DNA of 18,099 bases from an uncultured Clostridia bacterium (GTDB lineage: Bacteria > Bacillota > Clostridia > Oscillospirales > CAG-272), in the NCBI GenBank assembly GCA_946061315.1, contig CAMGRB010000001.1:1-18099 (forward strand), read 5' to 3'. Under the pieces are notes generated by a model. It ran no database searches and was not told the origin of the DNA. It was given only the letters and a program-made list of their open reading frames with translations. The position numbers and the translations under genes were made by a program. How positions within the stretch are numbered: position 1 is the first letter of the stretch; every line of letters starts with the position of its first letter. Positions 20 to 18,099 of this stretch are shown here, piece after piece.

Positions 20-1807
20 TTATGCGCCCGGAAGTGCAAGATTGAAATGGTCGAGCGCAATACCCGTATCGGACCCTTCAATGAGATAGTTCATCTGCAC
101 TATCATGGATTGATAAGCGCTGTAGAAAAGCCTCTTTGCGCTATCTTTCGTATATTGAGCCTCGTCCTCCGAGGTTTCGGGATATCTTATCGCCTTTACT
201 GTAACCGCTTCGTCAAAGGACTCCTCATACGTACCCGTCGCTTTTAATCCGTCAACCGACGCCTCTATACCGAACTGCCCCATGTAATAATCGTACAGAT
301 AAACGTTGTACGACGAGTTTACCTTGTTAAAGCTCATACAAAGTGTAAATCTGACAACTCCGCCCGATATGATGTCGTGCTCTATATCCATCACGTTGTT
401 TTCGGAATCGTAAATAAAGCGTGTTTCCGTGCCGTAGCTCGTTTCGGTTTCCGCCACGTTAAGAGTTATCGCATAGTTTACGCCGTCACCCTCGGTTGCG
501 TTTGTAAGCACGTAAATTTTGAGAATATCAAACACGTTCTCGTCTATTTTGTCGTTATAGAGCTGAATTACGCTCTTATTGTACGTCTTTGAAAGACCGC
601 CTATTACCTCCGCTTTTATCGCAAAATTCATATTCTGACCGTACGTCGCCGTCATTGTATTTATACCGACAAGCTCACCCTTGGAATTTACAAGCGGTCC
701 TCCGCTGTTGCCCGAGGAGATCGGGGCGGTCATCTGAATATATCTCATTCCCGATATAAGTCTGTCGGGATTTGCGACAATGCCCGACGAAAACGAGTCG
801 ACAAGCCCGAGAGAACTTCCGAGTGCATATACCGTATCTCCCGTTTTTACCCCTTCCGTTGATATTTTTATGAAGGGAGTGTCGCTTAAATTGATTTTAA
901 GCATCGCTATGTCCTGCTCGGAATCATACGATATTACGCTCGATACCACGTATTTTTCTCCCGAAAGAAGCGTTACTTCAAGAGCGTATGCCGATTTGAT
1001 GACGTGATAATTCGTTATTATTTCTCCGTCGGAGGATATAAAGAAACCCGAGCCCATTGAAAATCCGCGGCCCTGTTTGGTGTAAGCCGTTATATGAACC
1101 GTTGCATCCTTGATAAGATTATACACGTCCTCGGCGGTATTTTCCGTTTCCGTCTTTACGTACTCGCTCCTGTATGATGAGCCGCATATCGTACATTTAT
1201 ACGTAACGTAGCCGTTCTCGCTCTCCGACGGCTCAACCGTAGAATAAACGACGTACGAATGTTCGGTAACGCTGATTTGCCCGGACACCAGCTCCTTGCC
1301 GCACATTACGCAGGTTTTCATACGCTTGCCGGGCTCAAGGCAGGTAGGCGCCTTTGTCGTTATCCAATCACCCGCCACGTGATCAAGCGGAGTAACAAAA
1401 CCGTCCCTATATGTGTCTGCGCATCTTTGGCAGGTATATAACGTATAGCCCTGTTCTTCGCACGTCGGAGCAACCACTTTGTAGCCGTAGGCGTGGTCAA
1501 GGGCGTCTTTGAAATTTTCTTTTTTTGTATCCCCGCATACGTTGCAGGTGTAAAGGTCGTAGCCCTGCTCCGTACAGGTTGCCGATACGGTCTTTTTGGC
1601 ATAGTCGTGTCCCTTGCTGTCGACAAAATCGTATTTTTCGCTTTTTTGGCATACGGTACAGACTTTTTCGGTATATCCTTGCTCGGTACACGTCGGATCG
1701 TACGTCTTTTCAACGTAGTTGTGAGTGTGCGCATTCTCCAGGCCCATGCAGGAAACGGCAAACGTGCAAGCGAGTACGGTAAATAACGCCATCAACCATT
1801 TTTTCAT
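20..1807 (-). CDS. Lipoprotein with five Cys-rich repeats and an HtrA-like serine protease domain
   Basis: The 595-residue product starts with a lipoprotein-type signal peptide: Lys-Lys, a hydrophobic stretch, then AVSC with the lipidation Cys at residue 20. It is therefore probably anchored on the outer face of the membrane. Residues 27-210 hold five repeats of about 38 residues, each with a His (H29, H67, H105, H143, H183), usually a Thr-Cys, and a CxxC pair (C50/53, C88/91, C126/129, C166/169, C205/208). The fifth repeat lacks the Thr-Cys cysteine. Residues about 235-405 form a trypsin-like HtrA/DegP protease domain with the full triad: H268 in TNYHV, D299 in QDIAML and S368 in GNSGGP. No PDZ domain is recognisable; the last 190 residues are unassigned. 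The ATG has a GGAG eight bases upstream. Substrate and partners are unknown. Metal binding by the repeats is an inference from the His/Cys pattern. Confidence 0.9.
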   Translation of the reverse strand: MKKWLMALFTVLACTFAVSCMGLENAHTHNYVEKTYDPTCTEQGYTEKVCTVCQKSEKYDFVDSKGHDYAKKTVSATCTEQGYDLYTCNVCGDTKKENFKDALDHAYGYKVVAPTCEEQGYTLYTCQRCADTYRDGFVTPLDHVAGDWITTKAPTCLEPGKRMKTCVMCGKELVSGQISVTEHSYVVYSTVEPSESENGYVTYKCTICGSSYRSEYVKTETENTAEDVYNLIKDATVHITAYTKQGRGFSMGSGFFISSDGEIITNYHVIKSAYALEVTLLSGEKYVVSSVISYDSEQDIAMLKINLSDTPFIKISTEGVKTGDTVYALGSSLGLVDSFSSGIVANPDRLISGMRYIQMTAPISSGNSGGPLVNSKGELVGINTMTATYGQNMNFAIKAEVIGGLSKTYNKSVIQLYNDKIDENVFDILKIYVLTNATEGDGVNYAITLNVAETETSYGTETRFIYDSENNVMDIEHDIISGGVVRFTLCMSFNKVNSSYNVYLYDYYMGQFGIEASVDGLKATGTYEESFDEAVTVKAIRYPETSEDEAQYTKDSAKRLFYSAYQSMIVQMNYLIEGSDTGIALDHFNLALPGA

Positions 1808-6443: not shown

Positions 6444-7079
6444 TTAAAAATGCTTCAAAAGGTCGGAAAAAGTACCGAGCACTATGTCCGCTTTTTCGTA
6501 AGATGCGGCATCTCCTATGGCGACCGCCGTCATACCGCCGCTTTTGGCGGCGTCAATGCCCGCAAAAGCGTCCTCGATGACCGCGCACTCACAGGGAGAG
6601 AGCTTTATAAACTCCGCCGCCTTTAAGAATACCTCGGGGTCGGGCTTTGACTTTTTTATGTTCGTGCCGTCGGAAACTGCGTCGAAAAAGTCCGAAAGAG
6701 CGACACGTTCAAGGATATATTTCGTATTTTTGCTCGACGAGCCTATTGCCAGAAGATACCCTCTTTTTTTGAGCTCGGTAAGCGTTTTTCTCACCTCGTC
6801 GGACACGTCCGAAGGTGTCATCTTTGAAAGGTAGCCCTTGTAAATTTCGTTTTTCTTTTCGGCAATTTCAATTTTCTCGTTTTCGGAATACTCCCTTTTG
6901 CCGCCTTCGAGAATAATCTCAAGGCTGTCCATACGGCTAACACCTCGAAGGCGGTTGTTTATCTTCTCATCGAAATATATGCCGAGTTCGTCCGATACCG
7001 CTTTCCACGCAAGATAGTGAAATTTATCGGTAAAAACTATTACGCCGTCAAGATCGAATATAATGCCTTTTGTGTTCAT
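6444..7079 (-). CDS. pgmB: Beta-phosphoglucomutase (HAD superfamily)
   Basis: The 211-residue cytoplasmic enzyme should interconvert beta-glucose-1-phosphate and glucose-6-phosphate. It begins with the HAD motif DLDGV carrying the nucleophile D9 and the acid/base D11. The cap domain has the beta-PGM-specific H21 in FHYLAWK and LRGVSRMDSL with R49. Later motifs are GSSSKN, KKSKPDPEVF and IEDAFAGI with the acidic Mg2+ ligands. One departure is V-F-T in place of the usual T-D-T after DLDGVI. AAGGAG lies seven bases before the ATG. It is the last gene of the carbohydrate operon. Family members usually consume beta-glucose-1-phosphate made by a glycoside phosphorylase; no GH65-type enzyme is in the window, which makes the GH3 protein of the same operon a candidate source. 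Confidence 0.9.
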   Translation of the reverse strand: MNTKGIIFDLDGVIVFTDKFHYLAWKAVSDELGIYFDEKINNRLRGVSRMDSLEIILEGGKREYSENEKIEIAEKKNEIYKGYLSKMTPSDVSDEVRKTLTELKKRGYLLAIGSSSKNTKYILERVALSDFFDAVSDGTNIKKSKPDPEVFLKAAEFIKLSPCECAVIEDAFAGIDAAKSGGMTAVAIGDAASYEKADIVLGTFSDLLKHF

Positions 7080-7095
7080 TTTTGCTCTCCTTTTT

Positions 7096-7125
7096 CAAAA
7101 AAGCGTCTGCACGTGTCGCTTTTTG
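7096..7125 (-). other. Intercistronic hairpin upstream of pgmB, possible weak attenuator
   Basis: CAAAAAGCG and CGCTTTTTTG can pair across an 11-base loop containing CACGTG, between the COG2910-like gene and pgmB. The U-run is part of the stem, as in weak terminators, but only three G-C pairs sit near the loop. It may reduce read-through into pgmB or simply mark an mRNA processing point. It abuts the pgmB ribosome binding site. Confidence 0.4.
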
Positions 7126-7131
7126 CGTATT

Positions 7132-7767
7132 TTATTTTTCGCAAACGGTTATCATCATTTTATCGTGTGCTCTGTTCTCTGCCTCGTCTATCATGGCAGA
7201 GGCGTAATCGGCGTAGCCTATAACACTCTTTCCGTCACTGTTATAGATCACCTCGTCGGAGCCGATTTTATACTCGCCCGTTTTTGCTCTTTCATATTCA
7301 AATTCGAGCGAGGGGCAAACGTAGCACCAGCTTTTAAGCTCCGAGTTTTTCATATCCTCGTAGCCGAGGAGCATATTTTTTGATATTCCGTAAAGGAAAT
7401 CGGGATAGCCGTCCCCCTCGTAAATGCGCTTTGTATGGGTAGCATCCGCATAAAGACTGCCGGCACCGCCCACAACCATTATGCGCACGCCGCTTTCAAT
7501 TCCTATTTCTATAAGTCGGTCTATGCCTTTTCTATTGAGCGTCGGGTCGGAATTAAACCCGAAGCCGACCGCGCTTATAAGTACGTCAAGCTCCTCTACG
7601 TCCTGCGAGGTGAGTGAAAGAAGATCCCTTTCTACCGTTTTATCCACACAGTCGGGCGTATTTTTGCTGTTTCTTACGAAAGCGACGACGAAATGTCCTC
7701 TCTTTTTTGCCTCGGCAGCGAGCATTGAGCCTTGCTTGCCGTTAGCACCCACTATTCCTATTTTCAT
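7132..7767 (-). CDS. NAD(P)-binding protein of the COG2910 (NmrA-like) family
   Basis: The 211-residue protein starts with a Rossmann nucleotide-binding motif, GANGKQG at 7-13, followed by the family stretch RGHFVVAFVRN. It later shows MVVGGAGSL, TGEYKIGSDE and YADYASAMIDEAE, which match the putative NADH-flavin reductase/NAD(P)H-binding group (COG2910, YwnB-like). There is no catalytic YxxxK of a classical short-chain dehydrogenase, so the reaction is unknown. Its start overlaps the end of the membrane-protein gene by 26 bases. A GGGAGG ten bases before the ATG, inside that gene, supports translational coupling. Its job in a sugar operon is not clear. Confidence 0.8.
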   Translation of the reverse strand: MKIGIVGANGKQGSMLAAEAKKRGHFVVAFVRNSKNTPDCVDKTVERDLLSLTSQDVEELDVLISAVGFGFNSDPTLNRKGIDRLIEIGIESGVRIMVVGGAGSLYADATHTKRIYEGDGYPDFLYGISKNMLLGYEDMKNSELKSWCYVCPSLEFEYERAKTGEYKIGSDEVIYNSDGKSVIGYADYASAMIDEAENRAHDKMMITVCEK

Positions 7768-8212
7768 CTTCTTTTTTCCTCCCGTCTGCCTTCATTCCAA
7801 CTTTTATCGCAAGCGGATTTACAAAGCAGGCAACCGCGGTTGCCACTATGCAAAGGATCCATATATCCGAAAAATACGCTTTTACAAGTCCGCTAAAGCC
7901 TATTGCCAACGGCACGTTTATAAGCGTCATTATAATACCTATTATCGCCGTATTTATAATTGCCGGAATTATGTTTGAGGCTATGCTCCTGAATATGAGA
8001 TTTTTTGCGTGAAGCGTATTTGCAAACCACTCGCCTATTCTGCCAAAAGGTATAAGATATGAAAGGGCCATACCGACAGCGTAGCCGATAAGCACGAGAA
8101 GTACCGTTTTATAACCTATGCTTCTGTGTATTATTGACGCCGTAACGTTCATGGCAAGCGCCATTGATACGTTTATCACCGAAAACATTAAAAATTTTGC
8201 TTTTTGCGACAT
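7742..8212 (-). CDS. Small four-helix membrane protein of unknown function
   Basis: I do not recognise this 156-residue protein with certainty; it loosely resembles small DUF2798-type membrane proteins. Four hydrophobic segments are visible at about 7-27, 35-56, 78-102 and 115-136, with a short charged tail (KADGRKKEDENRN) after the last. There is no signal peptide cleavage site or catalytic motif. A GGAGAG lies seven bases before the ATG, 16 bases after the esterase stop codon, and the 3' end overlaps the next gene by 26 bases, so it is a real operon member. A role in export, membrane sensing or partnering with the NAD(P)-binding protein would be guesswork. Confidence 0.75.
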   Translation of the reverse strand: MSQKAKFLMFSVINVSMALAMNVTASIIHRSIGYKTVLLVLIGYAVGMALSYLIPFGRIGEWFANTLHAKNLIFRSIASNIIPAIINTAIIGIIMTLINVPLAIGFSGLVKAYFSDIWILCIVATAVACFVNPLAIKVGMKADGRKKEDENRNSGC

Positions 8213-8228
8213 TGCTTTTCTCTCCGAT

Positions 8229-9236
8229 TTATTTGCCTATTTTATCCTCGGTCTTTTGAAGCCACGTTATATAGAGGCGTATCCATTCCTTCGTTCCTCT
8301 CATATCAAACGGAGGGTGACCGTACATTTCGGGTATATTTTCCTGCGTTACGCCGAAGCCGTGACCGCCCTCTCTGAACATATGAACCTCGTATGGAACG
8401 CCGACTTTTTGATAAGCTGCCGCCATTTCGAGTATATTTGTGGGCGATACTACCCCGTCGTCAACGCATCCGCAAAGGAACATGGGAGCCGAGGAGCTTT
8501 TTACGTATCTCGGAAGATACATTTTGCGAAGAACTCTTTTGCAAAAGTCCGCGTCTGTATGTATCTCATCGCCAAATTGCATTGACATAAGGAATTTATC
8601 CGCGCAAAGCTCGGGATATATCGCGCCTATTGACATGAGCGACGTGTCTTCCTTGTCAATATCGTCGGGCACGTAGCCGTCGATATTAGGAAGCTTTGAG
8701 AAAAGGAACGGCGTTGCAACGGCAAGATTTCCGCCTGCGGAAAAGCCGATTATCGAGAGCTTGTCGGGGTCTATGCCAAACCTTTTTGCATTGTGCTTTA
8801 TATAGCATATCGCCCTTCTGCAATCGCAATATGCGGCAGGATATTTATAGGGCCAGACGCGGTATTTGAGAACAAATGCGCTGATGCCGTTTTTCTGTAA
8901 AAATTCGGCGGTCGGGTATCCCTCGTTGTCAAGCGACACGTCGTAGTAAGCACCGCCCGGACATATAAGCACGCTCTTTTTACTGCCCTCGGCAATAAAC
9001 GGAACTATATAAGGCTCATCGTCAAATTTACGGCTGACGTGCCCTTTCGGTATCTGGATAAGGCGGGTAACGGTATTTGCCCCCATCATATCGTTTCTTC
9101 TTTTTTCGGGGTTGAAAAGTGTTTCGCAAGCCTCAAATACGCTCCACTCCTTATTCCACGGCACAAGAGCGTCCATTTTGCTCTTTCCCGTGTTAAACGG
9201 CACCTTGCTGCCGTAGATTTTAATGTGCTCGTGCAT
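8229..9236 (-). CDS. Alpha/beta-hydrolase carbohydrate esterase (acetyl-esterase-like)
   Basis: The chosen start gives a 335-residue cytoplasmic protein without a signal peptide. It has an alpha/beta-hydrolase core with an oxyanion loop ICPGGAYYDV (about 91-100), the nucleophile S166 in GFSAGGN, the acid at D259/D260 in CVDDGVVSP and H292 in GGHGFG. The stretch around KYRVWPYKYPAAYCDCRRAI and GIDPDKLSIIG resembles acetylxylan esterase and BD-FAE-type enzymes that remove acetyl groups from plant polysaccharide fragments. Exact substrate is an inference from family and operon. The frame is open to 9323, but ATG 9236 has AAGGAGG five bases upstream, and the extra 29 residues would overlap the end of the GH3 gene and cover a hairpin, so they are probably not translated. 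Confidence 0.85.
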   Translation of the reverse strand: MHEHIKIYGSKVPFNTGKSKMDALVPWNKEWSVFEACETLFNPEKRRNDMMGANTVTRLIQIPKGHVSRKFDDEPYIVPFIAEGSKKSVLICPGGAYYDVSLDNEGYPTAEFLQKNGISAFVLKYRVWPYKYPAAYCDCRRAICYIKHNAKRFGIDPDKLSIIGFSAGGNLAVATPFLFSKLPNIDGYVPDDIDKEDTSLMSIGAIYPELCADKFLMSMQFGDEIHTDADFCKRVLRKMYLPRYVKSSSAPMFLCGCVDDGVVSPTNILEMAAAYQKVGVPYEVHMFREGGHGFGVTQENIPEMYGHPPFDMRGTKEWIRLYITWLQKTEDKIGK

Positions 9237-9255
9237 AATGTCCTCCTTATCCCAA

Positions 9256-9285
9256 TAAGGCTGCCGAGTTAGTCGGTCAGCCTTA
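9256..9285 (-). other. Intercistronic hairpin between GH3 and esterase genes
   Basis: TAAGGCTG-CCGA and TCGG-CAGCCTTA form a 12-bp stem with a one-base bulge and a GTTAG-type loop. It lies 20 bases before the esterase start and after the GH3 stop. No U-tract follows, so it is not a classical terminator. It could stabilise the upstream mRNA or mark a processing site. Confidence 0.6.
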
Positions 9286-9304
9286 AGGTGTATTAAAATA
9301 AGTA

Positions 9305-11017
9305 TTAAAGGTGCGTTTCCCACTTGCCGACGAAAGCGTCAACGGGGGATTCTCCCTTAAATTCGCTCCTGCCCGTGAGCTTTTCAACGAGCGCTTCTAT
9401 GACGGCGTCAAACCCGCAATAGCAGTTTATAAACGTGCGTACCTGCGGAACGTCAACGAGGTGATACGGGTTTTCAAGCGATACGAACACGGTGGGAACG
9501 CTGTGACAGTACGTCGGCACGTTTGCGCCCATCGGGCTTGCCCACTCTATTCTTACGACGGTCTGGTTGGAGCGCGTTTGAAGTGCGGCGGAATAGATTA
9601 TAAGATCGTATTTTTCCGTTATTTCCGCAACGGGCGTCATCATTCCCTCAAAGCCCTTTGACGGCTTGAATATATCGACATCGAAGCCCTCCTTTTTAAG
9701 AGCCTCGCAGAACTTCATATTCTCGGAGTCATCGATATTGAATATGGTCATTTCGTTTGCGTTTGCGTCAATCGGGTAGAAAAGTATCTTTTTATATCTT
9801 TGCGGAGTTATGGGTAAAACGCCCTCCTCCTCTTTTACGAGGGTTATAGATTTATCGGCGCACTCGCGGCTCCACGATTTGAACTTATCGTTGCCTATTA
9901 CCTTTTTTGCGTTCTCTATTGACGGGACGAGCGTGCCGTTTTTCTTCTTTTCGTGAAGCTTGAGAGAGGCTTTAAGGGCAAGTATGCGCAAAACCGCTTC
10001 GTCAAGGCGCTGTTTGGTTATTATTCCGTCGCGGTAGCCCTTTTGCATATATGAGAGATCCTCTTCAAGACACTTTGTAAAGAGGAACATATCGCACCCT
10101 GCGGCAATGGTCATAGGCACCATCTTTTCTCTCGGCATCATGGCGGCGATACCTGCCATCGTGCTCGAATCGGTTACTATAAGTCCGTTGAAGCCGAGCT
10201 TACCTCTTAAAAGGTCGGTGACGAGATATTTATTTACCGTTGCGGGCATTATGTCGCGGTCCTTTATACCGGGGCAGAAATGACGTGTGTAGGCGGGCTG
10301 CATAATATGCCCTATCATAACCGTCTTTACGCCTGCGTCTATGCACTCCTTGTATATCATACCGTAGGTTCTGTCCCACTCCTCGCAGGAGAGGTCGTTT
10401 ATCGAGGGGGCTATGTGTTGATCCCTCTCGTCCCTGCCGTCACCGGGGAAATGCTTTGCGCATCCGGCAAGAGAGTTTTTCTGAACCTCGGTTATATAAG
10501 CCTTGCCCATCTCTTTTACAAGCTCGGGGTCGGAGCCGAAGGTTCTTGTATTCGTTATCGGATTTCTCCAGTTATAATCTATATCCACTATCGGAGCAAA
10601 CGACCAGTTGGCACCTACCGAGGCGCCCTCAACACCGCATATCTCGCCAAGACGCCTTGCCTGCTCCACCTCTTTTGTAGCGGCTATTGCCATAGGCTTG
10701 CCAAGCGCTGTGCCGCCGATTATCATACCGTTGCCGCCCGCCTCGAAGTTTGCGGCTACGAGCATCGGAATATCGGAATATTTTTGCATTTTATTTGTTG
10801 CGGAGATACATTCCTCGGCGCTCATCGTGCGGCTCATAAATCCGCCGGGGCGCACCTCTTTGCCTATAAATTTGCAGTACTCCTCGTCGTCGTTGTACGT
10901 TATCAGGCAAAAGAGCTGTCTTATTTTATCGTCCTCGCTCATTTTCGAGAACGTATCGTTTACCCATTTTATATCGCCGTCGTCAAGATAAAACGGTTTT
11001 CCCTTGAAATCAATCAT
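9305..11017 (-). CDS. Cytoplasmic GH3 enzyme of the NagZ type (hydrolase or retaining phosphorylase)
   Basis: The 570-residue protein has no signal peptide and acts on imported sugars. Residues 1-350 form the GH3 barrel: NTRTFGSDP at about 156-164, KHFPGDG at 188-194, a loop with the Asp-x-His dyad D199/H201, and the nucleophile D283 in LIVTDSSTM. A second GH3 C-terminal-type domain follows, as in two-domain Gram-positive NagZ proteins. The Asp-His dyad is the acid/base system of the beta-N-acetylglucosaminidase subfamily; some members release sugar-1-phosphate rather than free sugar. The usual PGHG and DSH are PGDG and DQH here, which may mean a sugar other than GlcNAc. It starts eight bases after permease 2, with GAGGT five bases before the ATG. 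Substrate is uncertain: beta-glucosides, beta-GlcNAc or beta-xylosides. Confidence 0.88.
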   Translation of the reverse strand: MIDFKGKPFYLDDGDIKWVNDTFSKMSEDDKIRQLFCLITYNDDEEYCKFIGKEVRPGGFMSRTMSAEECISATNKMQKYSDIPMLVAANFEAGGNGMIIGGTALGKPMAIAATKEVEQARRLGEICGVEGASVGANWSFAPIVDIDYNWRNPITNTRTFGSDPELVKEMGKAYITEVQKNSLAGCAKHFPGDGRDERDQHIAPSINDLSCEEWDRTYGMIYKECIDAGVKTVMIGHIMQPAYTRHFCPGIKDRDIMPATVNKYLVTDLLRGKLGFNGLIVTDSSTMAGIAAMMPREKMVPMTIAAGCDMFLFTKCLEEDLSYMQKGYRDGIITKQRLDEAVLRILALKASLKLHEKKKNGTLVPSIENAKKVIGNDKFKSWSRECADKSITLVKEEEGVLPITPQRYKKILFYPIDANANEMTIFNIDDSENMKFCEALKKEGFDVDIFKPSKGFEGMMTPVAEITEKYDLIIYSAALQTRSNQTVVRIEWASPMGANVPTYCHSVPTVFVSLENPYHLVDVPQVRTFINCYCGFDAVIEALVEKLTGRSEFKGESPVDAFVGKWETHL

Positions 11018-11025
11018 CGTTTACC

Positions 11026-12075
11026 TCACTGTTCCTCTGTTGCGGCGGATTTATCTTTCCGCTTTTTGATGAAGTTTTTAAGCTTTACAAATTCTATTAT
11101 TTTGTTCTCGTTGTTGAGATAGATAAGGAATACGACGAGTATTACCGCCTCTATTACCTTGTAGACGTCGGAGGTGAAGGAAGCCACTTTGAAGCTTATC
11201 TGTCCGAAGCCTATCTGTATAAACTCGTAAGAGATACAACCGAGAAGTATCGCTATCTGCTTGTTGCAGTACTTGCCTATAAATCCCGAGAAAAACAGCG
11301 GGAGGAAGCAGCTGAACATCGTGGCTATGGTCGAGAAATTGATGGTCGGCGTAACTCCGTTTGTCGAGCAGATGGAGAGCGCGCCTGCGGCACCGAACAT
11401 CATACCCGAGATAGTGTAGCATATAACCGCGTTGGATTTTTCGTTTATTCCCGTATTGACGGCTATTTTCTGTCCCGTCTGGAGCGCACGGTAGTCGTAA
11501 CCGAACTTGGTATAGTGGAAAACCACTATCATAAACGCAAGAGCGATAAGCATTATAACGGTCACAGCGCCTATGTTGACGGCAAACGAATAGTAAGAAG
11601 AATCCGTTCCGAAGCCGACGGGTTTAAGTCCGCCCGTTATAATGGCTACTACTCCTTCGAGGACAAGTGTCATGCCGAGACCTATTATCATAGGGGGCAA
11701 GCGGAGTGCCACGTACAAAAGACCCGTTATGCAACCGAATATTGCGCTTGATACAGCGCCTATAAGTATCATTCCGACAGGACCGAGCCCGCTTGCATAC
11801 GCTATTTTTGCTCCTATTACGCCGCCTATTAACATCTGCGCGCCGGTTGAGAAGTCAAATCTGCCCGTATGCATATTTATGGATACCCCGAAAGAAAGCA
11901 AAAGGACGTAGGCAAGTCCTCTGAAATACAGTTGAAAACTGCTCTGGCTCGCAAAAAGGGAGGTCCCCGAGGCTGCGCACGCTATTGACATAACGACAAG
12001 GCATATTACGGGAATTATCGCTATTCCCACGCCTCTTTTAGCGTATTCCCCCGCTTTATTTTTTGAGATTGTCAT
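11026..12075 (-). CDS. Sugar ABC transporter permease 2 (RbsC-like, BPD_transp_2)
   Basis: The 349-residue integral membrane protein has about eight to ten hydrophobic helices. It carries the family landmark GRFDFSTGAQMLIGGVIGA (equivalent to the GGIDLSVGS region of RbsC) and a cytoplasmic coupling loop YDYRALQTGQKIAVNTGINEK. A charged C-terminal tail (FIKKRKDKSAATEEQ) ends the protein. With permease 1 it should form the channel of a type II/simple-sugar importer. The frame runs up to 12126, but ATG 12075 is preferred. AAGAGGTG lies four bases before it, and the longer start would include a strong hairpin in the coding region. Two unlike permeases in one importer recall the YtfT-YjfF arrangement. 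Confidence 0.88.
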   Translation of the reverse strand: MTISKNKAGEYAKRGVGIAIIPVICLVVMSIACAASGTSLFASQSSFQLYFRGLAYVLLLSFGVSINMHTGRFDFSTGAQMLIGGVIGAKIAYASGLGPVGMILIGAVSSAIFGCITGLLYVALRLPPMIIGLGMTLVLEGVVAIITGGLKPVGFGTDSSYYSFAVNIGAVTVIMLIALAFMIVVFHYTKFGYDYRALQTGQKIAVNTGINEKSNAVICYTISGMMFGAAGALSICSTNGVTPTINFSTIATMFSCFLPLFFSGFIGKYCNKQIAILLGCISYEFIQIGFGQISFKVASFTSDVYKVIEAVILVVFLIYLNNENKIIEFVKLKNFIKKRKDKSAATEEQ

Positions 12076-12099
12076 TTTGCACCTCTTTCCGATTATCCA

Positions 12100-12121
12100 C
12101 TCCCGCACTCTCGTGCGGGAG
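12100..12121 (-). other. Perfect 9-bp hairpin after the binding-protein gene
   Basis: CTCCCGCAC and GTGCGGGAG pair perfectly around a four-base loop, 17 bases past the stop codon of the substrate-binding protein and 25 bases before the permease 2 start. No U-run follows. Such GC-rich hairpins between binding-protein and permease genes commonly protect the upstream message from 3' exonucleases, so that the binding protein is made in excess. Confidence 0.75.
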
Positions 12122-12137
12122 GGCAATCATTTTGTCT

Positions 12138-13352
12138 TTATTTGTTGTATTCGTCGTGGAGAGCTTTTGCCGCGTCGTAGTCTGCGTCGCAAAGCTTCTT
12201 GAATTCGTCAAGCGTATTGCCGACGAAGTGATTGATAACTGCGCTATTGTAGCAGTAGCCGTCCGTCTTGTTGTCGGATGCGAGCATGCTCTGAAGGTCT
12301 GCCTTGCTCGTTGCTACCCAATAGTTCATTCCGAGCCTCAATGCGGTTCCGTCACTGTTTACTATCTTGTTCCCGTTTACTGCGCTGATTGCCATAACGA
12401 CGGCGGGAGCCATTGCCGATGCAAATTTACCGCAGTCATATGCGTAAACCGTATCGAATGCGGAAGCATAATCCTCGGTTATTGCGTCAACGCCGCCTAC
12501 CATAACGCCCGTTACCTTACCGTTTGCCTGGGTGATACCGTAAGCTATCTTTGCAACAGTATCGCCTGCTCCTACGGAGAGAACGCATACGCCGCCTGCT
12601 TCAAGGCTGTTTGTAAGCTTGGTCGAGAAAGCGTCGTCAAATGCAAAGCCGTCCATATATCCGGTTATTCTGTACTTGGTGCTTACGAACTTGGAAGGAT
12701 CAAGGCTCTTGCCTATGAGCTTGGGGATAAGCTCTTCTCTCGTCTTTACCCCGTCATAGCTTGTGCCTGCGTCCTCGCAGAAGTATGCGAGCATTCCGGC
12801 AAGTCTTTGTACGTGCATGTCCGCACCGTAAAGGGTTGCGCCGCCGAATATCGTAAATGCGCTCTGTCCCTTCTGCTCGACAAAGTATTTTGCCATAGCA
12901 TAGCCTGCCTCGTATTCGGTGTCACTCGTGGGTGCTACCGAGCCGAGAAAGTATTCGTTGTTCTTGAGCTGTTCGTACTGAGCTGCGGTAGGATGTCCCG
13001 TCGGGCATACGACGTACATCTTGTTTGAAGAAGCCGCGTCGACTGCCGCTATTATATCGTCGTCAGAGAAAAGGAATATTACGTCATAGCCCTTCGACGC
13101 ATACGTATTGATAGCCGATACTTCCTCGCTTGAGCTTGCGGTCGTCGTGAAATCTACCGTAAAGCCAAGCTCTTCGCCCATCTTTTTGAGGTACTCTTCC
13201 CACGCTTTTGCCTCTCCCGAGGAGTCATCCTCACGAAGAACGCCTATTTTCGTGTCGCCCTTTTTGCCTCCGCAGCTTGCAAATATTACGCCCATAGCAA
13301 GTATGAGAGTAAAAGCAAGAATTACGGAAAGCACTTTTTTCATGTTTTTCAT
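12138..13352 (-). CDS. Sugar ABC transporter substrate-binding lipoprotein
   Basis: The 404-residue protein begins with a signal peptide (MKNMKKVLSVILAF and a hydrophobic run) ending in the lipobox FASC, with lipidated C27, followed by a Gly-Gly-Lys-Lys linker. The mature part starts TKIGVLREDDSSG and continues with alternating strands and helices of a type I periplasmic-binding fold (YDVIFLFSDDDIIAAVDAA; TGVMVGGVDAITEDYASAFDT). It captures the sugar outside the membrane and delivers it to the two permeases. It is somewhat longer than usual sugar-binding proteins (about 300-340 residues). The frame extends upstream to 13394, overlapping permease 1. ATG 13352 is chosen because GGAGG sits eight bases before it and it leads directly into the signal peptide. 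The ligand cannot be told from sequence. Confidence 0.88.
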   Translation of the reverse strand: MKNMKKVLSVILAFTLILAMGVIFASCGGKKGDTKIGVLREDDSSGEAKAWEEYLKKMGEELGFTVDFTTTASSSEEVSAINTYASKGYDVIFLFSDDDIIAAVDAASSNKMYVVCPTGHPTAAQYEQLKNNEYFLGSVAPTSDTEYEAGYAMAKYFVEQKGQSAFTIFGGATLYGADMHVQRLAGMLAYFCEDAGTSYDGVKTREELIPKLIGKSLDPSKFVSTKYRITGYMDGFAFDDAFSTKLTNSLEAGGVCVLSVGAGDTVAKIAYGITQANGKVTGVMVGGVDAITEDYASAFDTVYAYDCGKFASAMAPAVVMAISAVNGNKIVNSDGTALRLGMNYWVATSKADLQSMLASDNKTDGYCYNSAVINHFVGNTLDEFKKLCDADYDAAKALHDEYNK

Positions 13353-13383
13353 CTTTTTTTCCTCCGTTTTTTGTTTTTGTTTT
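13353..13383 (-). promoter_or_regulatory. A-rich ribosome-loading region of the binding-protein gene
   Basis: The 31 bases between permease 1 and the binding-protein ATG are, on the coding strand, almost all A and C except for a single CGGAGG Shine-Dalgarno. Such an unstructured A-rich stretch favours ribosome loading. This fits high expression of the binding protein relative to the permeases. Confidence 0.55.
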
Positions 13384-14421
13384 TTATCTTTCAAGCATCT
13401 TCGGGCGGTTTGCTATTGAGAACAAGAATACAACCACCACAAAGAGTATGCCCTTGACGATTTGTAAATACCAGCTTCCCGTTACGTAAATGTTCATAAA
13501 CGAATCGAGGAAAGCCATCGAGAAGGCACCGAGCATAGCCGCATACATTTTGGATCTCGGTCCTCCGTTCATGTTCATACCGCCGAAAACGAGCGCTATG
13601 AGCATATTCATTCCCACGCTCGAGCCTGACGAAGCGGAGAGCGTCGGCGTTTGCACTATCATTGCAAAGGACGCAAGTCCTATTCCTATGCCCGCCAGAG
13701 CGAACGAGAGAATCGTAAGCTTCTTTGCATTTATTCCCGTAAGGTCTGCGCATAGCGGGTTGCCGCCGAGAAACTTTTGCTTTCTTCCGAGCTTTGTGAA
13801 GTAGAAAAGGAAGCAACACAAAACCTCAAAGCCCACAAGCAACGCTATTCTGAAGCCCGTATTGTTAAGCGAGTTCACAATAGACGGCGGTACCGGCACC
13901 GCGGCGTTTGTTCCGAAGGTCGTTATAAGCAAGGTCGCTATTGCGCCGTACACGTTCATCATAACTATCGTCATTATAAAGACGGGTAAGTTAAAGAGCG
14001 ATGCGAGCACGGAGTTAAGAACGCTTAACGATATTGCAACTACAAGACAGGTTAGTATCATAAGGAAAAGACTGCCCGTCTTTATTCCGACAAGTCCGCC
14101 GACAAGTGCGCTCACCAGCATATTCGAGCCGAGTGACAAGTCAAACGAGCCTGCGGAGAATATAAACGTTGCTCCCGTTGCCACAAGCGCAACGAGTGTG
14201 GCGTTTGATATTATTACCTTAAAGCCTATCGCCAGGTCGTAGCCCTCGATAAGAGCGCATATCACGTACAAAAGTCCGAGTACCGCGCAGGCGCCGAGCG
14301 GAATGTATTTAACTATATTCTGGGCGATAAGCGCCTTTTTCATCCTTGCCGCAGTTTCTTTCTCGGCAATCGCCTCCGCATCGGGGGCAGACAGAGTATT
14401 TATTACTTTTTCTTCCGACAC
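13384..14421 (-). CDS. Sugar ABC transporter permease 1 (RbsC-like, BPD_transp_2)
   Basis: The 345-residue membrane protein has a soluble N-terminus of about 38 residues, then about eight to ten hydrophobic helices. The family landmark AGSFDLSLGSNMLVSALVGG lies at about 89-108, and the coupling-loop region LGGNPLCADLTGINAKK is of the kind that contacts the ATPase. It differs clearly from permease 2, so the pair should form a heterodimer. The start is a GTG with GGAGG seven bases upstream; the stop codon of the ATPase gene is 12 bases before it. There is no nearby in-frame ATG that would preserve the ribosome binding site. Confidence 0.88.
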   Translation of the reverse strand: MSEEKVINTLSAPDAEAIAEKETAARMKKALIAQNIVKYIPLGACAVLGLLYVICALIEGYDLAIGFKVIISNATLVALVATGATFIFSAGSFDLSLGSNMLVSALVGGLVGIKTGSLFLMILTCLVVAISLSVLNSVLASLFNLPVFIMTIVMMNVYGAIATLLITTFGTNAAVPVPPSIVNSLNNTGFRIALLVGFEVLCCFLFYFTKLGRKQKFLGGNPLCADLTGINAKKLTILSFALAGIGIGLASFAMIVQTPTLSASSGSSVGMNMLIALVFGGMNMNGGPRSKMYAAMLGAFSMAFLDSFMNIYVTGSWYLQIVKGILFVVVVFLFSIANRPKMLER

Positions 14422-14433
14422 AGTATCGCCTCC

Positions 14434-15984
14434 TTAAACCATATATTTTATAATCTCGGCATCCGTAAGATCCGGGGATCTTTCAAATTCCTTGGTTATT
14501 CTGCCGTCCTTCATTATTACAAGACGGTCGCTCATTCCCATAAGCTCGGTCATTTCCTCGGAAATCATTATTATCGTCTTGCCCTCTTTTTTCATTCTGT
14601 ACATAAGCTGATACATCGTCTGCTTTACGCCTATGTCTATTCCTCTTGTCGGGCAGTCGAGGATAAGAATATCCGAATTACAGCCTATCCACTTTCCGAA
14701 AACGACCTTCTGTTTGTTTCCGCCGGATAACTGGGATACTTGCTGATCCATTGAGAAGCACTTTATTTTCATAAAGTCTATCTGCTCCTGTACGTACTTT
14801 TTCTCATCGGCAGAAAGGACTAAAAAGTCGCCCTTTGCAAACTCGGAAAGACCCGCTATTGCTATATTGTCCCTTATTGAAGCCTGCGTGCAAAGCGATT
14901 CCGTATCTCTGTCCTTTGCGACGTATCCTATCTTCTTCTTGGTTGCCTCGGTGGGATTTTTAAGCTCCTTGCCGTGAACGTACACGCATCCCTTATCGGG
15001 CTTTATCGCACCGAAAAGCACTTTGCCGAGGGTGTGCATTCCGCAATGGGAAAGACCGCCTATGCCGAGTATCTCGCCCTTGTGCGCTTCAAGTGTCAGA
15101 TCCTTTATTCTATCCTTATAGGTAGCGTTTTCGATTTTGAGAACTGCCTCGTCGCCGTAGCTTCCGTCATAATCCGAACGGTAATAATCGCCTTGAAGCT
15201 CTCTGCCTATCATCGCCATTCTTATCTTGTCGTCGTCGAACTCCTCTTTTTCAAAGGTTCTTATTATGTGTCCGTCACGAAGGACTGTCAAGGTATCGCA
15301 CTTATCGGTTATCTCGTCAAGGTCGTGTGAAATAAAGACGACCGCACGTCCCGAATTTTTCATTCTCTGCATAAGGTCGTATATTATCTCACGTCCTTTT
15401 TGAGAGAGGGACGTCGTCGTTTCGTCAACGACTATTATCTCGGGGTCTTGCATCCATACCTTTGCAACTTCGACAAGCTTTCTGTCCATCATATCGAGCG
15501 ATGCGGTGATTGCGCCTGCGTTTATGTGCCCCGCGCCTATATCGTCAAGCGCGGATTGCGCCGCTTTTTTCATCGCGCTTCCGTTTACGAAGCCCCATTT
15601 TCCTTTTTTAGAATTAAAGGAAGCAAATTTGTCGGTTTCGCAAAGGAACATATTTTCATATACCGTTATTCCCGGTACCGTTCCACTCTCCTGAACTATC
15701 ATTCCGACGCCCATTTTAAGAGCGTACGTCATCGAGGTCGGGTGCCACTCCTCGCCCATATAGTACATCTCGCCGCTGTCGGCAGGCTGCATTCCCGAAA
15801 AAATCGAGGTAACGGTCGATTTTCCCGAGCCGTTTTCTCCGATAAGACCGCGTATCTCGCCTCTTTTGACCTCGAGATTTACGTTATCGAGGGCAACAAC
15901 GGGACCGAAGGTTTTCGTCATATTTACAACTTTGAGTATTACTTCTCCGTTTATTCTTTCGTTATTTTCTTTTTTAAGTTCCAT
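14434..15984 (-). CDS. Sugar ABC transporter ATP-binding protein, two nucleotide-binding domains (RbsA/MglA-like)
   Basis: The 516-residue protein energises sugar import. Domain 1 has a full Walker A (GENGSGKST, 49-57), Q98 in the Q-loop, Walker B IIVVDE with E188, and H220 in the H-loop, but a poor signature (SLDMMDRKLVE, 162-172). Domain 2 has a degenerate Walker A (GIGGLSHCGMHTL), an intact signature LSGGNKQKV (419-427) and Walker B ILILDC, where Cys444 replaces the usual Glu. One ATP site is therefore canonical and the other decayed, more so than in typical RbsA. It is the first gene of the operon. The ATG at 15984 is preferred (AGAGG five bases away); an in-frame GTG two codons earlier overlaps the ribosome binding site. 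Confidence 0.92.
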   Translation of the reverse strand: MELKKENNERINGEVILKVVNMTKTFGPVVALDNVNLEVKRGEIRGLIGENGSGKSTVTSIFSGMQPADSGEMYYMGEEWHPTSMTYALKMGVGMIVQESGTVPGITVYENMFLCETDKFASFNSKKGKWGFVNGSAMKKAAQSALDDIGAGHINAGAITASLDMMDRKLVEVAKVWMQDPEIIVVDETTTSLSQKGREIIYDLMQRMKNSGRAVVFISHDLDEITDKCDTLTVLRDGHIIRTFEKEEFDDDKIRMAMIGRELQGDYYRSDYDGSYGDEAVLKIENATYKDRIKDLTLEAHKGEILGIGGLSHCGMHTLGKVLFGAIKPDKGCVYVHGKELKNPTEATKKKIGYVAKDRDTESLCTQASIRDNIAIAGLSEFAKGDFLVLSADEKKYVQEQIDFMKIKCFSMDQQVSQLSGGNKQKVVFGKWIGCNSDILILDCPTRGIDIGVKQTMYQLMYRMKKEGKTIIMISEEMTELMGMSDRLVIMKDGRITKEFERSPDLTDAEIIKYMV

Positions 15985-16030
15985 ATGCACCTCTGCGATT
16001 CATCTCTTTTCGGTTGGTTCTTACACCTAT

Positions 16031-16249: not shown

Positions 16250-18099
16250 ATGCAGTCCATATATGAAATACTTGAGTACAAGCATCCTTTGAACATCAAA
16301 ATTTTTCTTCACAAGGTAAACGCTTTTGCGCTCCATTGGCACAGGGCTTATGAGCTTTTGCTTATCCTCGACGGCAAGTGCGAGATAACGACGGGCAAAA
16401 CCTCGGTTTACGAAAAGGACGACCTCGTTTTGATAAACCCTTATATACCGCACTCCATTCACTCAAAGAAGGGTGCCGTTATTCTCGCGCTCCAGATAAA
16501 AGAGGACACCTTCGGAAAATCAATGCCCTTTGACGTGGACAGTAAGAAAAACCCGAGCGACGATTATTCGGAGATAAAGTCGATAATGGCAAGGCTTATA
16601 AAGCTCCACTCCGAGCACGCGCCGGGGCATGAAATACTTATGGAGAGCCTGCTTATGCTCTTAAAGTACGAGCTTGTCACGAAATACCGTATGGACAGCG
16701 ACGGCGTGGAGGAATTTGAGCAATACAAAAAGCATATATCGAAAATATCAAAGGTGCTCGAATACGTAAACGAGAACTTCCGCTCCGACGTGACCCTTGC
16801 CGAAACGGCAAACAAATTCTTCTTTGCCCCTGCGTATCTTTCGAGAATTTTTGAAAAAACGATGGGCATCACCTTCAAAAAGTATCTTGACGGGCTCCGC
16901 TTTACCGAGGCTATGTCGCTCCTCGTATCGACCGACAAGAGCATTGAGGAGATCGCTTTTGCTAGCGGATTTCCGAACGTGCGCGCGTTCGTTGCCATGC
17001 ACAAGGCGTCGTACGGTTGCCTGCCGAGCGAATACAGAAAGGGAAGCTCCGAATATCTTCGTGAAACTCCCAAAAAGATGCAATATATTGACTTTGAGAA
17101 AACCGATTACCTCTCCGAAATAGCCTCGTATCTAAAGGGCGGCTCCTCCGTTTCCGAAATAGTAAGTGCAAGCGGTGAGGGTGAGGTCTATTTTGATTAT
17201 TCCTTTGACTCCTCAAAGCCGATGGACGTTCTGAAGCATAATTTCAGAAATTTCTGCACCGTTGCGCGCGCCTCCGACCTGCTTCGCGAAAACGTCAGAG
17301 AAATGCTGCGCACCGCCCAGCGTGAAATAGGCTTCAAGTATATAAAGTTCCACGGAATACTCGACGACGATTTGAGCGTTTACACCAAAACCGCCACAGG
17401 CAAGATAATAATAAACTTTGATAATATAGATAAGATATTTGATTTTCTTTTATCTATAAATTTAAGACCGCTCGTTCAGCTTTCGTTTATGCCGAAGGCG
17501 ATGGCAAAATACCCCGACAAAAAAGTGTTCTTTCACGAATCTATTATAAGCGAGCCAGAAAACTACTACGTATGGGGAGAATTTATAGGAGAGCTTATTC
17601 ATCATCTTCTTACAAGATACGGTCTTGAGGAGGTTGAAAAATGGCTCTTTTCGCTCTGGAACGAGCCGGACTCCCCTCCCGATATGTTCGGCTTCTACGA
17701 TAAGGACACGTATAAAAAATTTTACCGTGTTACTTATAAGTCCGTAAAGAGCATCGCGCCCACCATAAAGTTCGGCTCCCCGTCCTTTATGTACGATTCG
17801 ATAACGAAAAAGGATATATTCGAGAATTTTATAAAGGACGTTGCCGACTGCCCGCCCGATTTTATAAATCTCCATTTTTATCCCGTTGACGGCTCGTTTG
17901 ACGATTCAGATGCAAAAAATCTCGGCGCGGCGATGAAGCTTATTTCCGACCCGTATATTCTTGAAAAGACGATAAGCAAGATAAAAGAAAAGCTTTTGTC
18001 GCTCGGCCTTTCCTCTCTGCCCATATATCTTACGGAGTGGAATTTTACCACCTCGCACAGAGATCTTTTGAACGATACCGCGTTCAAGGGTTCGTATAT
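16250..18099 (+). CDS. AraC-family regulator fused to a GH39 glycoside hydrolase domain (3' end beyond window)
   Basis: The frame is open from the ATG at 16250 (AAGGAG six bases upstream) to the window edge: 616 codons with no stop, so the protein is partial. Residues about 15-85 form a cupin-like sensor domain (HWHRAYELLLILDG, VLINPYIPHSI). Residues about 164-264 are the double helix-turn-helix of AraC regulators (LAETANKFFFAPAYLSRIFE; SIEEIAFASGFPNVRAF; PSEYRK). From about residue 300 a GH39 barrel begins (GFKYIKFHGILDDDLSVY). The acid/base E472 is in LWNEPD and the nucleophile E596 is in YLTEWN, about 124 residues apart as in beta-xylosidases. No signal peptide is present, so it is cytoplasmic. 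It is divergent from the ABC operon and is its likely regulator. Whether the GH39 part cleaves sugar or only senses it is open. Confidence 0.9.
   Translation, partial: MQSIYEILEYKHPLNIKIFLHKVNAFALHWHRAYELLLILDGKCEITTGKTSVYEKDDLVLINPYIPHSIHSKKGAVILALQIKEDTFGKSMPFDVDSKKNPSDDYSEIKSIMARLIKLHSEHAPGHEILMESLLMLLKYELVTKYRMDSDGVEEFEQYKKHISKISKVLEYVNENFRSDVTLAETANKFFFAPAYLSRIFEKTMGITFKKYLDGLRFTEAMSLLVSTDKSIEEIAFASGFPNVRAFVAMHKASYGCLPSEYRKGSSEYLRETPKKMQYIDFEKTDYLSEIASYLKGGSSVSEIVSASGEGEVYFDYSFDSSKPMDVLKHNFRNFCTVARASDLLRENVREMLRTAQREIGFKYIKFHGILDDDLSVYTKTATGKIIINFDNIDKIFDFLLSINLRPLVQLSFMPKAMAKYPDKKVFFHESIISEPENYYVWGEFIGELIHHLLTRYGLEEVEKWLFSLWNEPDSPPDMFGFYDKDTYKKFYRVTYKSVKSIAPTIKFGSPSFMYDSITKKDIFENFIKDVADCPPDFINLHFYPVDGSFDDSDAKNLGAAMKLISDPYILEKTISKIKEKLLSLGLSSLPIYLTEWNFTTSHRDLLNDTAFKGSY

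What the first reader, a model, noticed from the sequence alone, without database searches (positions are those of the whole stretch)
6444..11017. Possible GH3 phosphorylase to beta-phosphoglucomutase route in one operon
Seen: the cytoplasmic GH3 protein has the NagZ-type Asp-x-His dyad (D199/H201) and nucleophile D283, and the same operon ends with a beta-phosphoglucomutase that keeps H21 and R49. No GH65 or other classical phosphorylase is in the window. Known: some GH3 members with this His acid/base are retaining phosphorylases rather than hydrolases, and beta-PGM needs beta-glucose-1-phosphate. Inferred: retaining phosphorolysis of a beta-glucoside would give the beta anomer, which beta-PGM turns into glucose-6-phosphate, saving ATP. 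The change of PGHG to PGDG and DSH to DQH suggests a sugar other than GlcNAc, possibly glucose.
Basis: partly seen in the sequence, partly recalled or inferred. Interest (0 to 1): 0.72.

Follow-up and report, generated by a model that had tools for sequence, protein, structure and literature searches.

The report
GH3 phosphorylase coupled to beta-phosphoglucomutase
A Clostridia operon probably cuts imported beta-glucosides with phosphate instead of water and passes the beta-glucose-1-phosphate to its own mutase, an energy-saving sugar route suggested by repeated gene pairing and natural gene fusions but not yet tested at the bench.

Summary
GH3 (9305-11017; D199-Q200-H201, D283) and PgmB (6444-7079) lie in one same-strand gene run with an Rbs-type sugar ABC transporter. 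The GH3's best solved relative is BglP/BglX (5VQD), a characterised retaining GH3 beta-glucoside phosphorylase (43% identity; 487 bits versus 180 for B. subtilis NagZ), and BglP falls inside its clade while NagZ falls outside. The proposed hand-over of beta-Glc1P to beta-PGM is supported by co-location: pgmB lies within 2 kb of 9 of 29 BglP-clade GH3 genes but of 1 of 100 other GH3 rows in the same genomes (p = 4e-6). Seven listed natural fusions join BglP-type GH3 to PgmB, in both domain orders. No GH65, the usual beta-Glc1P source, was found in the 82%-complete genome. The enzyme class is known. I saw no report of its link to beta-PGM, but the key papers (Macdonald 2015 and 2018, Franceus 2021) could not be read. 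17 of 29 clade genes have no pgmB within 12.5 kb. The substrate is unknown: a rhamnosidase in two syntenic operons and the esterase suggest decorated plant-type beta-glucosides, but GH78 proximity is not statistically enriched (p = 0.10).

The parts
9305..11017 (-). GH3 beta-glycoside phosphorylase, BglP type (570 aa)
10415..10423 (-). codons of D199-Q200-H201 (His/Asp acid-base dyad and the Gln in the place of the Ser of NagZ)
   Evidence: D199 and H201 invariant among 146 aligned clade members; DQH in 116 of the 120 listed homologues, DHH in 4
10169..10171 (-). codon of the nucleophile D283
6444..7079 (-). beta-phosphoglucomutase PgmB (211 aa)
   Evidence: (TIGR01990 243.5 bits, cut-off 189.4)
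8229..9236 (-). BD-FAE/Abhydrolase_3 esterase-like protein, start re-assigned to ATG 9236
7742..8212 (-). small protein with no Pfam or NCBIfam match, conserved in the G204 operon (33%)
7132..7767 (-). NAD(P)H-binding protein (NAD_binding_10)
11026..12126 (-). ABC permease 2 (BPD_transp_2)
12138..13394 (-). putative substrate-binding lipoprotein (Peripla_BP_4 32.5 bits, just under its cut-off of 35.1; no PDB sequence relative)
13384..14421 (-). ABC permease 1 (BPD_transp_2)
14434..15990 (-). ABC ATPase of the arabinose/xylose/ribose type (two ABC_tran stretches; below the cut-offs of the NCBIfam models listed)
16250..18097 (+). divergent AraC-type regulator with a C-terminal GH39 domain, cut by the contig end; possible sensor of the system (inferred)
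   Evidence: long matches beside the GH3 in L039, L041, L046, L049 and L007

Best explanation
The operon imports a small beta-glucoside through an Rbs-type ABC transporter. Inside the cell an esterase, and in relatives a rhamnosidase or fucosidase, removes decorations (inferred). The BglP-type GH3 forms a beta-glucosyl-D283 intermediate and resolves it with phosphate, because the His201/Asp199 dyad lets the anion in, and so releases beta-glucose-1-phosphate by double displacement. PgmB converts this to glucose-6-phosphate without the ATP that glucokinase would need. Shown here: genes, residues, clade, co-location, fusions, no GH65 found. Inferred: phosphorolysis, anomer, transport, substrate.
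For: Best PDB relative is 5VQD/5VQE, a beta-glucoside phosphorylase, 8.9e-145 over residues 7-569; next is B. subtilis YbbD/NagZ at 180 bits. A review states that BglP is retaining and lists beta-Glc1P for it (PMC8950772, passages). BglP lies inside the 36-row clade (100/98) with NagZ (3BMX) and 3SQL outside. pgmB lies within 2 kb of 9 of 29 clade GH3s against 1 of 100 other GH3 rows (p = 4e-6) and within 5 kb of 11 of 29 against 3 of 100 (p = 3e-6). Of 21 pgmB copies, 12 lie within 12.5 kb of a BglP-type GH3, 4 within 1 kb of a GH65, 5 by neither. Seven BglP-type fusions among 120 listed PgmB-fusion candidates: 4 GH3-PgmB, 3 PgmB-GH3. The nine-gene operon is conserved in G204 (GH3 73%). No GH65 found in the own genome.
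Against: No enzyme was assayed. 17 of 29 clade GH3s have no pgmB within 12.5 kb, and a well-supported subclade of 11 has none. Among the 120 listed PgmB fusions, ABC ATPases (30) outnumber GH3 (8), and AraC, GH78, esterase and GH43 partners occur, so fusion shows a shared pathway, not direct hand-over. One fusion, P0136, has a NagZ-like GH3 with DSH. G204, which has the most similar operon, also carries a GH65-family match on another contig (145.8 bits). Genes from related genomes are not independent (G081, G135, G147 are one family). Some His-dyad GH3 enzymes are plain hydrolases. With 82% completeness a missing GH65 is not excluded.
Confidence: 0.8

Rival explanations
1. The GH3 is a hydrolase (beta-glucosidase or beta-N-acetylglucosaminidase); PgmB serves another beta-Glc1P source, such as an unsequenced GH65, or sits here by chance or as a general HAD phosphatase.
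For: Some GH3 N-acetylglucosaminidases hydrolyse without phosphate dependence (PMC6987092 passages). The genome is only 82% complete. 17 of 29 clade members lack a pgmB within 12.5 kb.
Against: The clade contains the characterised phosphorylase BglP and excludes NagZ. pgmB lies within 2 kb of 9 of 29 clade GH3s against 1 of 100 other GH3 rows. There are two fusion architectures. No GH65 was found in the own genome, whereas each of the 4 strong GH65 genes in the other genomes (E below 1e-100) has its own pgmB within 1 kb. PgmB passes the equivalog cut-off for bPGM.
Confidence: 0.12
2. The GH3 is a phosphorylase for another beta-sugar, such as GlcNAc, xylose or galactose, and PgmB acts on that sugar phosphate or is unrelated.
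For: BglP is listed with both beta-GlcNAc1P and beta-Glc1P as donors (PMC8950772 Table 1 passage). P0136 joins a NagZ-like DSH GH3 to PgmB. Related clade members have DHH, DPH or DAH instead of DQH, and one pgmB-linked member (L049) has DHH. The regulator carries a GH39 domain, a family with xylosidases (recalled).
Against: The window keeps Q200 as in BglP. I recall, but could not read, that in BglP changing a Gln to Ser moves specificity from glucoside to GlcNAc. PgmB matches the glucose-specific equivalog model and its substrate-contact residues are kept.
Confidence: 0.08

Closest known systems
BglP/BglX, GH3 retaining beta-glucoside phosphorylase (5VQD, 5VQE; AUG44408)
   Same: 43% identity over residues 7-567, same KHFPGDG...DQH motif and nucleophile, same clade
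   Different: BglP was found by activity screening of a metagenomic library (PMC8950772 passages); I know of no reported pathway partner, but could not read the original paper. Here the gene sits with pgmB and a transporter.
GH65 phosphorylase plus beta-PGM routes (maltose, trehalose, kojibiose)
   Same: Same logic: phosphorolysis to beta-Glc1P, then beta-PGM; frequent neighbours and fusions (40 of 120 listed PgmB fusions carry PF03632)
   Different: GH65 is inverting and acts on alpha-glucosides; this enzyme would be retaining and act on beta-glucosides, with an unrelated fold (established knowledge).
NagZ / Nag3 (GH3 beta-N-acetylglucosaminidases)
   Same: His/Asp dyad and GH3 barrel
   Different: DSH and PGHG become DQH and PGDG; 180 bits against 487 for BglP; NagZ outside the clade. 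NagZ works in peptidoglycan recycling (recalled). Nag3 itself was not in the trees.
GH94/GH149 cellobiose-type phosphorylases
   Same: Phosphorolysis of beta-glucosides
   Different: Inverting, giving alpha-Glc1P, which beta-PGM does not use (established knowledge). Not searched for in the genome.

Membership tests
BglP-type GH3 phosphorylase | Falls in the clade of BglP, outside NagZ | tested here: met
   careful tree with 3BMX and 3SQL: 36-row clade 100/98, in 100% of 200 bootstrap trees; PDB ranking. Nag3 not included.
BglP-type GH3 phosphorylase | His/Asp dyad, Gln between them, Asp nucleophile | tested here: met
   D199-Q200-H201, D283
BglP-type GH3 phosphorylase | Phosphate-dependent retaining cleavage of beta-glucosides | not testable with these tools
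   needs an assay
beta-phosphoglucomutase (TIGR01990) | Score above the equivalog cut-off | tested here: met
   243.5 bits, cut-off 189.4
beta-phosphoglucomutase (TIGR01990) | Nucleophile, acid/base, phosphate and substrate-contact residues | tested here: met
   mapped positions kept except K45 to R
NagZ beta-N-acetylglucosaminidase | PGHG...DSH motif and closest kinship with NagZ | tested here: not met
   PGDG...DQH; BglP much closer
GH65-based beta-Glc1P route | A GH65 gene in the genome | tested here: not met
   0 matches in the 82%-complete assembly; the same search found GH65 in 4 of 14 control genomes

The most novel reading that the evidence does not exclude
A second, unrelated entry into beta-PGM metabolism exists in nature: retaining GH3 phosphorylases that make beta-Glc1P from beta-glucosides, in Bacillota operons (and fused proteins) where esterases and rhamnosidases or fucosidases first trim acylated or deoxyhexosylated plant glucosides. 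This would give the orphan GH3 phosphorylases their physiological role.
Probability: 0.5. Interest if true: 0.72.

Novelty: new variant of a known kind. Interest (0 to 1): 0.62.

Why it matters
BglP was found by activity screening, and how far GH3 enzymes with a His dyad are phosphorylases in the cell has been disputed. A repeated pairing with beta-PGM gives this GH3 branch a metabolic role and a direct coupled assay. It would explain pgmB genes in genomes where no GH65 is found, and would help to correct GH3 names such as 'beta-N-acetylhexosaminidase', which two of the 120 listed homologues carry (P0003 and P0040). It matters for energy budgets of anaerobes and for enzymatic synthesis from beta-Glc1P.

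Tried and rejected
GH78 as a general partner: GH78 lies within 10 kb of 5 of 29 clade GH3s against 7 of 100 other GH3 rows, p = 0.10, so the rhamnosyl-glucoside idea is kept only as a hypothesis from the closest operons. GH78-like/PgmB fusions as a hidden phosphorylase: the N-terminal part of P0135 was searched in 283 genomes; 10 had matches, and none of the 10 loci, with flanks of at most about 1.5 kb, held pgmB or this GH3; left open. L007 first looked like a truncated PgmB beside the GH3 (47 aa hit), but the pgmB found in that genome lies by a GH65 on another contig, so L007 counts as unlinked. The binding protein gave no PDB sequence relative, so its ligand cannot be inferred. No structure prediction was run, since a solved relative covers nearly the full length. 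Literature: the listings of the ten searches and the passages read showed no link between GH3 phosphorylases and beta-PGM; the listed papers were not read in full. Macdonald 2015 and 2018 are not held; Franceus 2021 was seen only as a reference.

Rows dropped or chosen: one search used 21 of the 23 pgmB matches (the two weakest, G955:C1:1909238 and G310:C8, left out). The 29 clade GH3s are 28 tree rows plus the fragment G152:C30, placed by identity only. The 12.5 kb limit was set so as to take in G178 (11 kb); the 2 kb and 5 kb limits do not depend on it. The 100 other GH3 rows include fragments, two rows of one frame in G167 and one row with a stop. One search used 62 GH78 rows, down to E 1.3e-21; weaker rows were dropped. 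L021_G129 was left out of the trees for its long branch. The genome-level counts use all GH3 matches at the cut-offs given, including a few outside the clade (G127, G129, G141; G248, G332). L008, a 99%-identical contig cut inside the GH3, was not counted.
Full report
Observation. The GH3 is 570 aa, 9305-11017 on the minus strand; PgmB is 211 aa, 6444-7079. D199-Q200-H201, D283, PgmB H21 and R49 are present. Upstream in the same gene run are an ABC ATPase with two ABC stretches, two permeases and a putative binding lipoprotein; between GH3 and PgmB are an esterase-like protein, a small protein without a Pfam family and an NAD(P)-binding protein. Gaps from 15990 down to PgmB run from -26 to +68 bp, and LysR follows after 271 bp. 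A divergent AraC-type regulator with a GH39 domain stands at the other end, cut by the contig end. The window is the whole contig C1 of an 82%-complete, 223-contig assembly.

What the GH3 is. Against solved structures it matches 5VQD/5VQE, named beta-glucoside phosphorylase BglX, with 487 bits over residues 7-569; the next hit, B. subtilis YbbD/NagZ, has 180 bits. Identity to BglP is 43% over 571 columns. In a careful maximum-likelihood tree of 43 rows that includes NagZ (3BMX) and 3SQL, BglP lies inside the same 36-row clade (100/98, in 100% of 200 bootstrap trees); NagZ and a group of four GH3s with Asn in the place of D199 lie outside. Trees without NagZ agree. Nag3 of C. fimi was not included. 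D199 and H201 are invariant in an alignment of 146 clade members; DQH is found in 116 of the 120 listed homologues and DHH in 4. A review, read in passages, says that only two GH3 phosphorylases had so far been characterised, Nag3 and BglP, and that such enzymes are retaining and convert beta-glycosides to beta-glycosyl phosphates (PMC8950772). I recall that in BglP a Gln to Ser change moves specificity to GlcNAc, and take the DQH Gln to be that residue; the paper was not held, so this is recall and inference.

What the PgmB is. It passes the bPGM equivalog cut-off (243.5 against 189.4 bits), its closest solved relatives are named beta-phosphoglucomutases, and the mapped active-site residues are kept apart from K45 to R.

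Are they linked beyond this genome? The GH3 was found, own genome included, in 14 of 197 genomes of the order (E <= 1e-60), 16 of 391 of the class and 2 of 398 of the phylum (E <= 1e-80). In 32 genomes that carry it or a distant relative, I compared all GH3 rows with the pgmB copies. pgmB lies within 2 kb of 9 of 29 BglP-clade GH3s and 1 of 100 other GH3 rows (p = 4e-6); within 5 kb 11 of 29 and 3 of 100 (p = 3e-6); within 12.5 kb, a limit set to take in G178, 12 of 29 and 4 of 100 (p = 2e-6). The single other GH3 within 2 kb stands on the far side of a BglP-type cluster in G552. Seen from pgmB: of 21 copies, 12 lie by a BglP-type GH3, 4 within 1 kb of a GH65 (one in the same open frame) and 5 by neither. 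At genome level the association is weaker: order 6 of 14 against 14 of 183 (p = 9e-4), class 8 of 16 against 59 of 375 (p = 2e-3); of those, G165, G465, G529 and G562 carry their pgmB away from the GH3. The genomes are related, so these p-values overstate independence. On the tree the pgmB label needs at least five changes, and the two earliest-branching rows carry it, though their place is not strongly supported; this fits old linkage with losses or repeated gain. 17 of the 29 have no pgmB within 12.5 kb, among them a whole subclade of 11, so the pairing is a feature of part of the clade.

Fusions. Three of the 120 listed GH3 homologues are fused to PgmB. A search with the PgmB part of one of them, which by its length limits sees only long proteins, gave 140 proteins, 120 listed. 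By their Pfam labels, counted by hand: 40 carry GH65, 30 an ABC ATPase, 11 GH78, 8 GH3, and 4 each an esterase of the BD-FAE family and an AraC regulator. Of the 8, 4 are GH3-PgmB and 3 PgmB-GH3, all BglP-type; the PgmB-GH3 ones group with BglP at moderate support (88/89), the others with the window's subclade (100/100 for 8 rows). The eighth, P0136, joins a NagZ-like GH3 with DSH to PgmB. Fusions to transporters and regulators show that fusion marks a common pathway; among the partners, GH65 and BglP-type GH3 are known sources of beta-Glc1P.

GH65. None was found in the own genome; the same search found it in 4 of 14 control genomes. Of the 32 genomes 6 have a GH65 match, 4 of them strong. 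G204, which has the most similar operon, has a weaker GH65-family match (145.8 bits) on another contig, so the two routes can coexist there; G415 has both a GH65 with its own pgmB and the GH3 operon with another. GH94-type enzymes were not searched for; they would give alpha-Glc1P and would not explain PgmB.

The operon elsewhere. G204 (GH3 73%) has the same order of all nine operon genes and the divergent AraC-GH39 regulator, with a GH78 rhamnosidase directly after PgmB. G178 has GH3, transporter, esterase, GH78, NAD-binding protein and PgmB in one run. G415 has regulator, transporter, GH3, esterase and PgmB. L004 and L005 have a GH29 fucosidase-type gene upstream of GH3-PgmB. In Bacillus solitudinis (L006) a GH78 stands directly before the GH3, with the nearest pgmB 40 kb away. 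The own genome has a GH78 on another contig, 53.5% identical to the G204 one. I therefore propose, as the less certain part, that the substrates are small decorated beta-glucosides such as rhamnosylated or acylated plant glucosides. Overall, GH78 is not significantly closer to clade GH3s than to other GH3s (5 of 29 against 7 of 100, p = 0.10).

Novelty. The enzyme class and beta-PGM are known; the route as a repeated natural pairing did not appear in the listings of ten paper searches or the passages read, but the papers most likely to mention it could not be read. I rate it a new variant of a known kind, phosphorylase plus beta-PGM, with a retaining GH3 in the place of GH65.

Noticed in passing
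P0124, P0131, P0135, P0138, P0150, P0179, P0182, P0184, P0192, P0196, P0210: Eleven of 120 listed PgmB fusions carry a compact GH78-like module (P0135: PF21104 plus PF17389) of about 480 aa. It may be a rhamnosidase of the same pathway or an unrecognised phosphorylase.
   Followed up: partly
P0136 (755 aa, Lachnospiraceae): A NagZ-like GH3 with the DSH motif is fused to PgmB, outside the BglP clade (27% identity to the window GH3; on a very long branch).
   Followed up: partly
L016, L018, L058 (G191, G165, G167); L044, L049; L051: Within the clade the DQH motif changes to DAH with PGNG, to DHH and to DPH; these may mark other sugars. The DAH and DPH rows and L044 lie in the 11-row subclade that has no pgmB nearby.
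   Followed up: partly
L020, L022, L036, L037 (G141, G127, G248, G332): A separate GH3 group close to the clade has Asn in the place of the dyad Asp (N-x-H). Whether it hydrolyses or phosphorolyses is open.
   Followed up: no
L043:5507-7771: A GH2 gene stands directly before a clade GH3 without pgmB; a similar-looking ORF precedes the GH3 in L057 (the L057 ORF was not Pfam-tested).
   Followed up: no
window 16250-18097: AraC regulator with a C-terminal GH39 glycosidase domain, possibly a sugar sensor made from an enzyme; long matches to it stand by clade GH3s in L039, L041, L046, L049 and L007.
   Followed up: partly
L071:2267-4939 (G000 contig C113): The own genome has a GH78 53.5% identical to the GH78 of the syntenic G204 operon, but on another contig.
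   Followed up: partly
window 20-1807: Lipoprotein-like trypsin-type serine protease with repeated Cys-rich units (such as CTEQGY) before the protease part (by eye).
   Followed up: no
L073:9731-17864 (G597): GH78 next to what look like rhamnose catabolism genes (isomerase, kinase, aldolase; by eye), about 8 kb from a GH3-PgmB pair.
   Followed up: no
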